A DNA stretch of 60,246 bases from Neisseria sp. Lineage in GTDB: Bacteria > Pseudomonadota > Gammaproteobacteria > Burkholderiales > Neisseriaceae. The stretch spans positions 1 through 60,246 of the forward strand of contig NZ_JAUMZU010000018.1 in assembly GCF_030527965.1 (NCBI RefSeq), in the 5' to 3' direction. The notes below the pieces were generated by a model, which was not told where the DNA came from, did not search any database, and saw only the letters and a program-made list of their open reading frames with translations. The translations under genes were made by a program, and so were the position numbers. This document shows positions 16,161 through 35,259 of this stretch, in pieces. Within the stretch, counting starts at the first letter, position 1. Every line of letters starts with the position of its first letter.

Positions 16161-18305
16161 TTATTTACCAGTGTAGGCTTGATACTGGTAGTAGTTTCGA
16201 GCAGTGCGTTCCACACCGTTGAAAATAATGCCTTCTACTTTGATACCGGCATTGTTCAGACGAGTCATACTGTCTTCAAGCTCGTCGTGAGAAGTTTTTC
16301 TGTAACGGGCAATCAACAGGTTGAGGTCTGCAATACGGCCAATGACAGAGCTGTCGGTTACGGCCAACACAGGCGGCGTATCAATGATAACGTAATCGTA
16401 TTTATCTTTTGCCATGGTGATGAATTCTTTAAATTTATCACTCATTAGCATTTCAGACGGGCTTTGCGGTGAATGGCCGCGTGAAATAAAGTCCAAACCC
16501 GGAACATCGGTTTTCTTGATGCAGCTGTCCAAGCTCAACGAACCATCAAGAATTTCGGCCAAGCCGTTTTCTTCAGACAGGCCGAACGAATGATGCAGCA
16601 TGCCGCGGCGCAAGTCGGCATCAACCAGTAAAACGCGCGAACCGGCTTGAGCAGTAACGGCGGCCAGATTGGATGACACGAAAGATTTACCGACGTCGGG
16701 CGTAGTACCGGCAATCATAATCATGCTGCTCTTATTGTTGATGGTTGCGAAATGAAGGTTGGTTCGCAAGGCACGGATGGTTTCAACGGCAACATCGTTG
16801 GTATGGATATTGGCCAGAAGGTATTGCGGGCGTTTGCTTTTGCTGGTGCTCAAACGAGTATAGCGTTTGTCTGCCTTCAATTGGGTATTGGAAACCGGAA
16901 TGGTCGCAATCAGATTGTAGCCCATCGCACGGATATCGTCGGAAACTTTGATGGTCGGGCGAGCAATGGCACGCAGTACAAACAAGGAGGAGGCCAGTAA
17001 ACCGGCAGCAACCGCAGACAATAAAGTAATCATGGCGCGGCGCGGCTTGAAGGGTTTTTCTTCTGCGGCAGCCGAGTCGATAACGCGGATATTACCTTGC
17101 GAGCTGGCTTTCAGAATATTCAACTCTTGTTGACGGTTCAGCAGTTGAACATAAGTGGCCTGATTGATTTCGACATCACGGTTCAAACGGATAACTTCTT
17201 GCTCTGTTTGAGGCAAGGTTGAAATCTGACGGTTAATTCTCTCTTTGGCGGTTTCTAAAACTTTCAAGCGGTCGCGAACCGATTTGTAAGTCGGATGTTC
17301 CGGTGTGTACAGCTCCGACATGCCTGCTTCTTCGGCACGTAAGGTGGTAATCTGAGTCTCGATATCGGTCAGGCTGCGCAAAGCGCCTTGGGCTTCGGAG
17401 GGAATGTCTACCGAGCCGGTGTGGGTTCGATATTGATTCAACTTGGTTTCAGCTTCTTGCAGCGATTGTTTTAACCGCGGTAATTCTTCGCTGATGAAAG
17501 CCAAACCGCTGGTTGCCATCTGAACATCGCGGTTTTTATTTTGGCTGACATAATTGTCAATGATATGGTTGAGAACCATTTCAATCTGTTTCCGGTCCGA
17601 ACCGTTATAGCTTAAGGTAATCAGTGACCCCGCCTCGCTTTGGGTATTGGCAGACAGATTGTCGTTAACCGAATTGATGGCACGCAAACGGGAAAGTTTG
17701 GTAATCGAGAAAGATTGTCCAGCATCAGCAACCAATTGGTTAACAACCAATTCGCCGGTACCGATTTTTAATGGTTTACCAACTTTGCCTTCTAAATTAT
17801 CACCGTCAGGCGTTGTCAAAGTATAAGCACTCGGGCTTTTGACATCCAATGTGAATTTTTTATTTTCAAAGTCTTCAGGAACAGTCATTCTCTCAATTTT
17901 GAGTTGAGGCTGGCCGGAGCTATTAAATTTGGCAAGTGTGGCACCGATGATGGGGGTGTACATCGGCTGAATCTCCAAATCGAGTTGGAGGTTGTCTACA
18001 GTTTGCCCGATAACGGAGCGCGACTTAATTAAGTCGATTTCAGCATCGGAACCAGTACCGTTAATGCCGCTGCGTTGAGGAACGTTGGCATTATTCAATT
18101 GCGGCAAAATTTGGTTATTTTGAGCTTCTACTGCCAAGAGAGCATCGGCACGATATACAGGTTCGGCAGACATGCTATACAAGCCGCCGATGATAAAGCC
18201 CGCTGCGACGGCCGTTCCAATAGGTAACTTATGACGATAAAGAATTGTCATTAACTGTCGTAAATCGATAGAACTTTCAAATGTTTGGGTGGATTTATTT
18301 GTCAT
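16161..18305 (-). CDS. wzc: Polysaccharide co-polymerase / tyrosine autokinase Wzc
   Basis: The 714-residue inner-membrane protein has an N-terminal Wzz domain with a first membrane helix (about residues 30-50), a long periplasmic coiled-coil GNVR region and a second helix near 420-440. A cytoplasmic BY-kinase domain follows, with Walker A AGTTPDVGKS near 533-541, Walker A' VLLVDADLRRG, Walker B-type YVIIDTPP and a C-terminal tyrosine cluster (YYQYQAY). Wzc controls chain length and export of Wzy-made polysaccharide, through cycles of autophosphorylation and removal by Wzb. It is the last gene of the cluster, 91 bases after wzb. Confidence 0.94.
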   Translation of the reverse strand: MTNKSTQTFESSIDLRQLMTILYRHKLPIGTAVAAGFIIGGLYSMSAEPVYRADALLAVEAQNNQILPQLNNANVPQRSGINGTGSDAEIDLIKSRSVIGQTVDNLQLDLEIQPMYTPIIGATLAKFNSSGQPQLKIERMTVPEDFENKKFTLDVKSPSAYTLTTPDGDNLEGKVGKPLKIGTGELVVNQLVADAGQSFSITKLSRLRAINSVNDNLSANTQSEAGSLITLSYNGSDRKQIEMVLNHIIDNYVSQNKNRDVQMATSGLAFISEELPRLKQSLQEAETKLNQYRTHTGSVDIPSEAQGALRSLTDIETQITTLRAEEAGMSELYTPEHPTYKSVRDRLKVLETAKERINRQISTLPQTEQEVIRLNRDVEINQATYVQLLNRQQELNILKASSQGNIRVIDSAAAEEKPFKPRRAMITLLSAVAAGLLASSLFVLRAIARPTIKVSDDIRAMGYNLIATIPVSNTQLKADKRYTRLSTSKSKRPQYLLANIHTNDVAVETIRALRTNLHFATINNKSSMIMIAGTTPDVGKSFVSSNLAAVTAQAGSRVLLVDADLRRGMLHHSFGLSEENGLAEILDGSLSLDSCIKKTDVPGLDFISRGHSPQSPSEMLMSDKFKEFITMAKDKYDYVIIDTPPVLAVTDSSVIGRIADLNLLIARYRKTSHDELEDSMTRLNNAGIKVEGIIFNGVERTARNYYQYQAYTGK

Positions 18306-18396
18306 TTATTTGTTCTCTAAAAGTTTAAGCAAGTTGTCTTTCGAGTAGATAAGCATTTTGGGGATATTGAGTGTGCCAGGTAGGCTAAAAAATAAG

Positions 18397-18834
18397 CTAA
18401 TGCCGAAGTTTTTCAGCCCAGGCTTGGCAGGCCTTTTCAATTTGTTTGTATATCTGATCAAACGTATCTTGGCTTTTTTTATAAGGATCTCTGATAAATA
18501 AAGGGCTTATCCATTGGCCTAGCAACATTGTTTTACTGCGGGACTGCGGGCTGATTAAAGCAATATCATCAACATGAGATTCTTCCATTACTAAAATCAA
18601 GTCTGCAAATTCACACATTTGCGGTGTTAATTGGCGTGCAATGTGCGGAGTTATGTCAATGCCGTTTTTACGAGCCGATAGAATCGCTTCTGGTTCTGCC
18701 GGACGATCCGGCGTTACATTGATGCCTGCTGAAACAATGAATAAGTCCGGCAATAATTGCTTTAATACGTACTCCGCTGTTGGAGAGCGGCAGATATTGC
18801 CGGTGCACACAATCAATATCTTTTCATAACTCAT
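18397..18834 (-). CDS. wzb: Low-molecular-weight protein-tyrosine phosphatase Wzb
   Basis: The 145-residue enzyme has the signature CTGNICRS (catalytic Cys10, Arg16) and the general-acid loop RDPYKKS. It is expected to dephosphorylate the tyrosine cluster of the Wzc encoded just downstream. I start at ATG 18834 because the catalytic loop then lies at the normal distance from the N-terminus. The frame extends upstream to 18906 into wza but without homology. It lies 10 bases after wza and so is in the same operon. Confidence 0.94.
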   Translation of the reverse strand: MSYEKILIVCTGNICRSPTAEYVLKQLLPDLFIVSAGINVTPDRPAEPEAILSARKNGIDITPHIARQLTPQMCEFADLILVMEESHVDDIALISPQSRSKTMLLGQWISPLFIRDPYKKSQDTFDQIYKQIEKACQAWAEKLRH

Positions 18835-34153: not shown

Positions 34154-34173
34154 AGTTTCTCCAGTTGGGGGTT

Positions 34174-35259
34174 TTAGTTTTGTAAGCCCAGACGTTCGCC
34201 TTGATAGTTACCGTCTAATACGGCTTGCCACCATGCTTGGTTGTTCAAATACCACTCGACGGTTTTGCGGATGCCTGTTTCAAAGGTTTCTTGCGGCTTC
34301 CAGCCTAAATCGCGGCCGATTTTTGCGGCATCAATGGCGTAGCGATGATCGTGACCCGGGCGGTCGGTAACGTGGGTAATCAATTCTTGATAGGATGTGA
34401 TGTTGGGTGTGTTCGGGTTTTGTGCGGCAGGGCGCAATTCATCCAGAATGCCGCAAATGGTTTTGACGACATCGATGTTTTTGCGTTCGTTATGGCCGCC
34501 GATGTTATAGGTTTCCGCAACTTCGGCTTGGGTAAAGACTGTCCACAATGCGCGGGCGTGGTCTTCAACAAACAACCAATCGCGGATCTGATTGCCTTCG
34601 CCGTAAACCGGCAAGGGTTTGCCGGCCAAGCAATTGAGAATCATCAGCGGGATCAGTTTTTCCGGAAAGTGGAAAGGGCCGTAGTTGTTTGAGCAGTTGG
34701 TCAGTACGACAGGTAAGCCGTAGGTTCGGTTCCATGCGCGCACCAAATGGTCGCTGGAGGCTTTACTGGCAGAATAGGGGCTGCTGGGTGCGTAAGGCGT
34801 GGTTTCGGTAAATAAGTCGTTGGTGCCGTGCAGGTCGCCGTATACTTCGTCGGTGGAGATATGGTGGAAACGGAAGGCAGCTTTGTCTTCTTCAGACAGG
34901 GTATTCCAATATTGGCGGGCGGCTTCAAGTAAGGTGTAGGTGCCGACGATGTTGGTTTCGATGAAGTCGGCAGGGCCGTCAATTGAGCGGTCTACATGGC
35001 TTTCGGCTGCCAAGTGCATGATGCCGCGAGGTTGGTATTGGGCAAAAAGCTTGTCCATCGCTTCGCGGTCGCAAATGTCGGTTTGTGAAAAGATATAGCG
35101 GGAATTGCCGGAAACGTTTTCCAGAGAATGTAGGTTGCCTGCGTAAGTGAGTTTGTCGATGTTAACCACCGTTACGTCGGTGTTGTTGATTAAATGACGC
35201 ACAACGGCAGAACCGATAAAGCCGGCGCCACCGGTGACAAATACGGTGTTTTTTTGCAT
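34174..35259 (-). CDS. rfbB: dTDP-glucose 4,6-dehydratase
   Basis: The 361-residue extended SDR has the NAD motif GGAGFIGSAVVRHL, the THISTDEVYGD-type segment (HHISTDEVYGD) with catalytic Thr-Asp-Glu, and YSASKASSDHL (Tyr-x3-Lys). It forms dTDP-4-keto-6-deoxyglucose. It is the first gene of the long minus-strand sugar cluster; a possible promoter lies about 100 bases upstream. Confidence 0.96.
   Translation of the reverse strand: MQKNTVFVTGGAGFIGSAVVRHLINNTDVTVVNIDKLTYAGNLHSLENVSGNSRYIFSQTDICDREAMDKLFAQYQPRGIMHLAAESHVDRSIDGPADFIETNIVGTYTLLEAARQYWNTLSEEDKAAFRFHHISTDEVYGDLHGTNDLFTETTPYAPSSPYSASKASSDHLVRAWNRTYGLPVVLTNCSNNYGPFHFPEKLIPLMILNCLAGKPLPVYGEGNQIRDWLFVEDHARALWTVFTQAEVAETYNIGGHNERKNIDVVKTICGILDELRPAAQNPNTPNITSYQELITHVTDRPGHDHRYAIDAAKIGRDLGWKPQETFETGIRKTVEWYLNNQAWWQAVLDGNYQGERLGLQN

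What the first reader, a model, noticed from the sequence alone, without database searches (positions are those of the whole stretch)
16161..35259. Complete Wzx/Wzy-dependent capsule or exopolysaccharide locus in a Neisseria-like genome
One minus-strand block encodes sugar supply (rfbBAC, tviBC, dehydratase, aminotransferase), initiation, three glycosyltransferases, Wzx, Wzy and Wza-Wzb-Wzc. Characterised Neisseria capsules use the ABC-transporter Ctr/Lip route. A group-1-style export set with a tyrosine kinase and phosphatase would be a different surface polymer for this genus, here built on pilin-glycosylation-like sugar enzymes.
Basis: partly seen in the sequence, partly recalled or inferred. 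Interest (0 to 1): 0.85.

Follow-up and report, generated by a model that had tools for sequence, protein, structure and literature searches.

The report
Protein-glycan locus doubling as polymer locus
The surface-polysaccharide gene block of this Neisseria relative of N. wadsworthii is real and of a kind already reported in commensal Neisseria, but comparison suggests it is also the genus's protein-glycosylation locus, so one sugar unit may serve both a surface polymer and glycoproteins.

Summary
In detail: 16 minus-strand genes at 16161-35259 encode sugar supply, an initiating transferase (PHPT), three glycosyltransferases, Wzx, a Wzy-like protein and Wza-Wzb-Wzc. The novelty claim does not: such a cluster was reported in commensal Neisseria in 2011 as putative LPS genes (PMC3078933), strong Wza relatives occur in 30 of 46 same-genus genomes, and this genome also has a Ctr-type locus. 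The 'pilin-glycosylation-like' genes prove to be the genus's pgl genes. The single PglD lies 65-182 bp from wza in all 30 Wza-positive genomes. In 8 of 16 Wza-negative genomes the same PHPT-pglC-pglD set was seen beside the same ribD, without wzy and wza-wzb-wzc; in two it is split, in the rest cut by contig ends or not seen whole. So pgl core and polymer locus appear to be one locus. I propose that one lipid-linked oligosaccharide feeds both Wzy/Wza and PglL, as in Acinetobacter baumannii. The window has a distinct allele, seen only in the five wadDUS genomes, with other Wzx, Wzy and glycosyltransferases. Shared use, the polymer and the direction of change are inferred.

The parts
34174..35259 (-). 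rfbB, dTDP-glucose 4,6-dehydratase
   Evidence: TIGR01181 509.5 vs cut-off 365.1
33281..34153 (-). rfbA, glucose-1-phosphate thymidylyltransferase
   Evidence: TIGR01207 513.3 vs 360.65
32681..33262 (-). rfbC, dTDP-4-dehydrorhamnose 3,5-epimerase
   Evidence: TIGR01221 269.2 vs 155.75; rmlD is unlinked, on G000:C12
31315..32592 (-). tviB-like UDP-GlcNAc C6 dehydrogenase
   Evidence: NF011729 TviB 698.2 vs 592
30235..31260 (-). tviC-like UDP-GlcNAcA C4 epimerase
   Evidence: NF011728 TviC 537.6 vs 760, below cut-off
28717..29991 (-). Wzx flippase, not detectably related to PglF
   Evidence: PF01943 67.7 vs 28.2; hhalign against a PglF profile, probability 0.34 percent, both profiles shallow
27478..28674 (-). 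candidate Wzy polymerase
   Evidence: PF04932 21.9 bits, below 31.7; conserved in the five wadDUS genomes; low-confidence model
26507..27454 (-). GT2 glycosyltransferase
   Evidence: PF00535
25449..26570 (-). GT4-type glycosyltransferase b
   Evidence: PF13692, PF00534
24262..25413 (-). GT4-type glycosyltransferase a
   Evidence: PF00534, PF13692
23558..24172 (-). initiating phosphoglycosyl transferase (PHPT; like the transferase domain of PglB, no acetyltransferase); ORF opens at 24265, internal ATG at 24172 gives 204 aa
   Evidence: PF02397 222.3; best solved relative 8g1n, diacetylbacillosaminyl-1-phosphate transferase
22259..23434 (-). PglC, PLP aminotransferase for the 4-keto sugar
   Evidence: PF01041 326.7; 83 percent identical to the pgl-locus copy of Wza-negative genome G028
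20112..22025 (-). PglD, membrane UDP-GlcNAc 4,6-dehydratase; the only full-length one found in the genome
   Evidence: PF02719 431; single full hit in own genome; solved relative 5bju WlaL
18845..19999 (-). Wza outer-membrane lipoprotein
   Evidence: PRK15078 over cut-off; solved Wza 9xgv, 2j58
18397..18834 (-). Wzb low-molecular-weight tyrosine phosphatase; ORF opens at 18906, internal ATG at 18834
   Evidence: PF01451 119.8; CX5R and DPY motifs
16161..18305 (-). Wzc tyrosine autokinase and co-polymerase, with C-terminal NYYQYQAY tyrosine cluster
   Evidence: GNVR, WZC_N, Wzz, TIGR01007 over cut-off; solved Wzc 9exq, 7nhr; tail
16122..16151 (-). terminator-like hairpin from two inverted wadDUS
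   Evidence: first of 32 listed sites, 24.9 expected in shuffles; fold z-score -3.85
35441..36547 (-). ribD, upstream flank that marks the address
   Evidence: found beside the locus in Wza-positive and in 8 Wza-negative genomes

Best explanation
This is the neisserial pgl core locus in its polymer-making form. PglD and PglC make a UDP-4-amino-trideoxy sugar, the phosphoglycosyl transferase loads it on undecaprenyl phosphate, and three glycosyltransferases extend it (four sugars if each adds one), using sugars that probably include a HexNAc uronic acid (TviB/TviC) and L-rhamnose (RfbABC with the unlinked RmlD). Wzx flips the unit. In the periplasm it can go two ways: Wzy polymerises it and Wzc/Wzb/Wza export the polymer as capsule or exopolysaccharide; PglL, encoded elsewhere, puts units on proteins. 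Shown: gene content, order, one full-length PglD, PglL-type ligase present, PglF orthologue not found, and co-occurrence of wzy with wza-wzb-wzc. Inferred: the enzymatic products, the shared use, and export of a polymer.
For: Families. One full-length PglD per genome in 45 of 46 same-genus genomes (the miss, G038, is 68% complete); no second one in the own genome. pglD-wza gap 65-182 bp in 30 of 30 Wza-positive same-genus genomes and in G054 of another genus (coordinates typed). Gene order over fetched loci: 24 genomes read pglF-(pglP)-wzy-pglG-pglH-PHPT-pglC-pglD-wza-wzb-wzc (pglP not found in 7 of 24; in G042 pglP precedes pglF; some have a second pglG-like gene). In 8 of 16 Wza-negative genomes PHPT-pglC-pglD was seen beside the same ribD. 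wzy in 29 of 29 Wza-positive genomes whose locus is spanned (24, G050 in pieces, plus 5 window-type; G024's contig is too short) and in 0 of 10 Wza-negative genomes with pglF to PHPT on one contig, where one search shows no other long polytopic ORF. Identity as pgl: the PglB of G028 and G013 has PDB 4m98 'Pilin glycosylation protein' as best match. PglL in own genome: PF15864 over cut-off, 602 aa; by PF04932 no other ligase but the window Wzy (the third, weak hit is an IcmF protein). PglF orthologue in 0 of 5 window-type genomes, found in G010 and in the query's own genome G028. Published: 3-4-sugar protein glycans in all isolates tested, N. mucosa and N. flavescens among them (PMC6959607 section 8); A. 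baumannii precedent (PMC6333632 passages).
Against: No polymer and no glycoprotein from this strain has been seen. The Wzy call is weak and its model poor. A second phosphoglycosyl transferase plus aminotransferase pair on contig C31 could start the protein glycan instead. No acetyltransferase lies in the block, so the first sugar may differ from that of other Neisseria. PMC3078933 assigned a related cluster to LPS, in a strain said to make a disaccharide O-repeat, which does not fit a four-sugar unit. Four-sugar protein glycans also occur in N. cinerea and one N. polysaccharea strain, species of the Wza-negative kind, so glycan length does not mark the polymer form. In G012 and G021 pglD lies apart from PHPT and pglC. 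Of five Wza-positive genomes from other genera only G054 has pglD beside wza. PglL was looked for only in the own genome.
Confidence: 0.66

Rival explanations
1. A dedicated capsule or exopolysaccharide locus only: the pgl-type genes feed the polymer, and protein glycosylation in this strain is absent or started by the second phosphoglycosyl transferase on contig C31.
For: A second PHPT and aminotransferase exist at G000:C31. No PglF orthologue was found, and the window locus has no PglG/PglH hit.
Against: A PglL-type ligase is present. Only one full-length PglD was found, so the second pair would need this locus's product or another substrate. In human-associated Neisseria the pglB/C/D genes are protein-glycosylation genes (PMC6959607 sections 7 and 8).
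Confidence: 0.17
2. An O-antigen locus: the polymer is ligated to lipid A core, as PMC3078933 proposed for N. sicca 4320.
For: The published reading for a related cluster. Wzx/Wzy loci serve O-antigens widely (established knowledge).
Against: A full Wza-Wzb-Wzc set with a tyrosine-cluster Wzc is typical of capsule/EPS export, not of O-antigen (established knowledge). Own genome shows no separate PF04932 ligase beside PglL and the window Wzy; ligases outside that family were not tested, and PglL itself might act on lipid A core.
Confidence: 0.1
3. A recently acquired foreign capsule island inserted near ribD.
For: Wzx, Wzy and GTs without detectable relation to those of the other Neisseria loci, and added rfbBAC-tviBC; GC dips to 0.40 at 27-29 kb.
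Against: Six host-dialect wadDUS lie at 16.0-35.3 kb, two of them in the end hairpin. The allele is in all five wadDUS genomes, beside ribD in the four where that flank was seen. PHPT-pglC-pglD-wza-wzb-wzc is shared with most of the genus. So a replaced middle, not a new island, and not recent.
Confidence: 0.05

Closest known systems
[quoted passage not shown] PMC6959607)
   Same: PHPT-pglC-pglD core at the same ribD address, unlinked PglL.
   Different: Window adds wzy and wza-wzb-wzc, and has another flippase and other glycosyltransferases plus rfbBAC-tviBC. That paper's S2 legend notes an 'O-antigen ligase like' ORF, an HAD hydrolase and a formyl transferase among the pgl genes; its text holds no word beginning with 'wza', as the library search for Neisseria, pglF and wza did not list it.
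N. sicca 4320 putative LPS cluster (PMC3078933, Figure 8 legend and Table 2)
   Same: Translocase, Wzy, GTs, aminotransferase, epimerase, Wza, Wzb, Wzc; not present in the pathogens.
   Different: Read there as LPS and not linked to pgl in the passages and section read; different sugar module; CidB/CidA beside wzc there, a HemS-domain gene here.
Acinetobacter baumannii K locus with PglL (PMC6333632)
   Same: One Wzx/Wzy/Wza-Wzb-Wzc locus whose K unit also decorates proteins through PglL.
   Different: There reported as established; here inferred. In many Neisseria the polymer half is missing.
Group 1 capsule export, E. coli/Klebsiella Wza-Wzb-Wzc
   Same: Wza and Wzc match solved Wza and Wzc over most of their length; Wzb is an LMW phosphatase.
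   Different: Initiation by a PglB/PglC-like PHPT rather than WbaP; Wzi not tested.
Ctr (ABC transporter) capsule of Neisseria (PMC6202450)
   Same: Also in this genome: CtrB over its cut-off with CtrA-, CtrC- and CtrD-like neighbours on contig C14.
   Different: Separate locus and separate mechanism.

Membership tests
Wzx/Wzy-dependent capsule or EPS locus | initiating phosphoglycosyl transferase, GTs, Wzx | tested here: met
Wzx/Wzy-dependent capsule or EPS locus | Wzy polymerase | tested here: inconclusive
   Wzy_C below gathering score; model pLDDT 51; position and conservation fit
Wzx/Wzy-dependent capsule or EPS locus | Wza, Wzb, Wzc | tested here: met
Wzx/Wzy-dependent capsule or EPS locus | surface polymer made | not testable with these tools
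   needs the strain
Group 1 capsule in the strict sense | WbaP-type initiation and Wzi | tested here: inconclusive
   initiator is PglB/PglC-like rather than WbaP; Wzi not searched
Neisseria pgl core locus | PHPT-pglC-pglD in order at the ribD address | tested here: met
Neisseria pgl core locus | PglF flippase orthologue and PglG/PglH | tested here: not met
   PglF not found in the genome; no PglG/PglH hit in the window
Neisseria pgl core locus | unlinked PglL | tested here: met
Neisseria pgl core locus | products glycosylate proteins | not testable with these tools
   shown by others for human-associated species, not for this one
O-antigen locus | separate WaaL-type ligase in the genome | tested here: not met
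   PF04932 search of own genome: PglL, window Wzy, and an IcmF protein
Ctr ABC-transporter capsule locus | CtrA-D in the block | tested here: not met
   the Ctr-type genes lie on contig C14

The most novel reading that the evidence does not exclude
The protein-glycosylation locus of Neisseria, that of the gonococcus and meningococcus included, is a stripped surface-polymer locus. The ancestor made one oligosaccharide for a Wzy/Wza polymer and for PglL; lineages that lost wzy and wza-wzb-wzc kept only the protein branch. In the Wza-positive species the known protein glycan is one repeat unit of an undescribed surface polymer, and the wadDUS species carry a second serotype of it. (Odds lowered from 0.5 to 0.45 on rechecking, because only one of five Wza-positive genomes from other genera has the pglD-wza linkage.)
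Probability: 0.45. Interest if true: 0.78.

Novelty: new variant of a known kind. Interest (0 to 1): 0.58.

Why it matters
It would join two sets of observations that the papers read here treat apart (pgl protein glycosylation; a 'putative LPS' cluster in commensals), predict a second surface polymer in many Neisseria beside the Ctr capsule, give the known protein glycan structures a second meaning as repeat units, and suggest that the pathogens' protein glycosylation descends from polymer synthesis. It is directly testable by deleting genes in commensal laboratory strains.

Tried and rejected
Foreign island: rejected, see rivals. 'Wza instead of Ctr': rejected; of 46 same-genus genomes 23 have both, 7 Wza alone, 6 CtrB alone, 10 neither, four of these ten (G038-G041) being 68-85% complete. 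ops/JUMPstart element (motif recalled): GGCGGTAG occurs 9 times in the window against 1.2 expected, but none lies between rfbB and ribD. Promoters: 29 sites against 34.9 in shuffles, no signal. Homology of the window Wzy and Wzx with the other Neisseria Wzy and PglF: hhalign probabilities 0.33 and 0.34 percent, none found, but the profiles are shallow. Wzy structure: mean pLDDT 51.2, so no fold search was made.

Trees. An rpoB DNA tree (57 rows; G041 and G042 gave no rpoB hit, and not all other-genus genomes were fetched) needs at least 6 changes of Wza state over same-genus rows plus G054, 11 over all rows. It has long branches, uneven base make-up, an outgroup that is not one side of a branch, and other genera inside the genus, so its rooting is unsafe. 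A PglD tree (46 rows, careful) needs 2 changes and puts 13 Wza-negative rows in one clade inside Wza-positive ones (100/99); G040 and G041, also Wza-negative, branch near the root. The two trees disagree, which fits one loss spread by recombination, or faster PglD evolution after loss. Change counts cannot tell gain from loss.

Errors: I labelled G001 as lacking Wza although one search found one; one search repeats the tree without G001. One search failed on a script error; one search replaced it.
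Full report
WHAT IS THERE. The window is all of contig C10 of a 2.27-Mb Neisseria genome. Its DNA-uptake dialect is wadDUS, 35 copies against 0.01 expected, first described in N. wadsworthii (PMC3630211, passages). Of the seven named records found, N. wadsworthii 9715 and Neisseria sp. 83E34 have the nearest Wza (85 and 84%; the window's own genome may be left out there). The block 16161-35259 is confirmed gene by gene and is followed by a terminator-like hairpin. The polymerase is the weakest assignment.

IS IT NEW FOR THE GENUS? 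No. Strong Wza relatives (E below 1e-100) are in 30 of 46 same-genus genomes and in 5 of 37 others of the family. PMC3078933 (section 11 and passages read) already showed such a cluster in N. sicca 4320, with homologues in relatives and none in N. meningitidis or N. gonorrhoeae. The own genome also carries, on contig C14, a CtrB over its cut-off with CtrA-, CtrC- and CtrD-like neighbours that stay below curated cut-offs, next to Stealth and GT-D type genes. PMC6202450 (passages and section 11) reports capsule gene homologues in 13 non-pathogenic species, N. wadsworthii included; Wza and Wzy were not found in its main text.

THE LINK TO PROTEIN GLYCOSYLATION. The dehydratase is the only full-length one of its kind found in the genome. 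Over 83 family genomes, 45 of 46 same-genus genomes have one full-length orthologue (G037 has one further weak partial hit; G038 none). In all 30 Wza-positive ones it lies 65-182 bp from wza, as in G054 of another genus, with PglC next to it in all 30. In 8 of 16 Wza-negative genomes (G009, G013, G017, G023, G026, G028, G031, G047) PHPT, pglC and pglD lie together beside the same ribD. Of the other eight, G025 has the three genes but no ribD in the pieces fetched, G018 has ribD to pglC on one contig and pglD on another, G012 and G021 have pglD apart from PHPT and pglC, G039, G040 and G041 are cut by contig ends, and G038 gave no PglD. Where looked at, this is the pgl core locus: the PglB of G028 and G013 matches the solved 'Pilin glycosylation protein' 4m98 best, and the order fits PMC6959607 (section 7).

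THREE FORMS. Pgl-only: pglF-pglG-pglH-pglB-pglC-pglD; some have pglP; G031 and G047 lack pglG and pglH. Polymer form, 24 genomes: the same with wzy before pglG and wza-wzb-wzc after pglD, and with ATP-grasp, HAD, formyltransferase or acetyltransferase genes between PHPT and pglC. Window form, 5 genomes: rfbB-rfbA-rfbC-tviB-tviC-wzx-wzy-GT2-GT4-GT4-PHPT-pglC-pglD-wza-wzb-wzc (rfbBAC-tviBC seen in 4 of 5, as G034's contig ends at wzx; G037 also has an ATP-grasp gene). G024 is Wza-positive but its contig ends before the wzy position. The window-form Wzx and Wzy show no detectable homology to the others, its three GTs gave no tblastn hit at 1e-8 in the other loci, and PglF was not found in the five genomes. 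The form coincides with wadDUS: all five window-form genomes show it and none of the other same-genus loci counted do (window; DUS counted in fetched pieces only).

CO-OCCURRENCE. wzy and wza-wzb-wzc come and go together: 29 of 29 spanned Wza-positive loci have wzy, 0 of 10 Wza-negative loci with pglF to PHPT on one contig have it, and those ten intervals hold no other ORF of 250 aa or more with six or more hydrophobic stretches. A polymerase elsewhere, or of an unrelated kind, would be missed; a few unidentified polytopic ORFs lie near pglD or pglC in other Wza-negative pieces (G012, G021, G040, G041). What is kept in pgl-only genomes is what a lipid-linked oligosaccharide needs; what is missing is what a polymer needs. 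The six genomes with AT-DUS as main dialect are all Wza-negative; PMC3630211 (passages) reports AT-DUS in all available N. gonorrhoeae and N. meningitidis genomes and in N. lactamica, N. cinerea and N. polysaccharea. Which handle is which species I cannot say.

MECHANISM. See best explanation. The three glycosyltransferases plus the PHPT predict a unit of four sugars if each adds one; published glycans of N. elongata, N. mucosa, N. oralis and N. flavescens are four-sugar units with a uronic acid at position three, but so are those of N. cinerea and one N. polysaccharea strain. TviB/TviC suggest a HexNAc uronic acid here too, and RfbABC with RmlD suggest L-rhamnose. In four of the five window-form genomes nothing lies between PHPT and pglC, so the first sugar might keep a free 4-amino group; that is speculation, as an unlinked acetyltransferase was not searched for.

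DIRECTION. Thirteen Wza-negative rows are nested among Wza-positive ones in the PglD tree, two more branch near its root; Wza-negative genomes are scattered in the rpoB tree. Outside the genus, G054 has PHPT-pglD-wza-wzb-wzc in a row (with a PHPT of only 40% identity), but in G001, G002, G004 and G065 wza is not beside such a pglD. Loss is my preferred reading, not proven.

LITERATURE LIMITS. Ten library searches. The search for Neisseria with pglF and wza gave one paper, on Vibrio by its title. PMC9239064 and PMC11130364 were seen in passages only, as were PMC7738311 and PMC5542703, which do not bear on the point. PMC6959607's S2 legend notes an O-antigen-ligase-like gene among pgl genes, so part of the picture was seen. 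That nobody has joined the two is true only for what these searches and the read sections cover; figures and supplements were not seen.

Noticed in passing
window 10528-11742 (-): 404-aa protein of RTX calcium-binding repeats with an HCBP-related end, some 4.4 kb from the end of the block; its export was not looked at.
   Followed up: no
window 38445-39404 (-): Imm49-family immunity protein with no partner recognised nearby; not found between yafJ and hslO in G048 and G014.
   Followed up: partly
window 13313-14807 (-): Two consecutive ORFs that look like two parts of one transporter; the larger one is a DcuC-family match covering about half the profile, the smaller one was not scanned. Possibly a broken gene.
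   Followed up: no
L093:9454-11332 (own genome, contig C31): A second phosphoglycosyl transferase and DegT aminotransferase pair without a dehydratase, among unrelated genes.
   Followed up: partly
L040:945-10637 (own genome, contig C14): Ctr-type capsule locus with Stealth CR1/CR2, GT-D and a 1111-aa glycosyltransferase next to the ctrA-like gene.
   Followed up: partly
L097:6621-10184 (own genome, contig C16): IcmF-type protein, sign of a type VI secretion system.
   Followed up: no
window, 35 sites: wadDUS copies, many as close inverted pairs, as at 16124-16149, 13256-13283 and 56985-57012.
   Followed up: partly
L062 (G050): pglF and wzy each appear in pieces, by decay or assembly error.
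   Followed up: no
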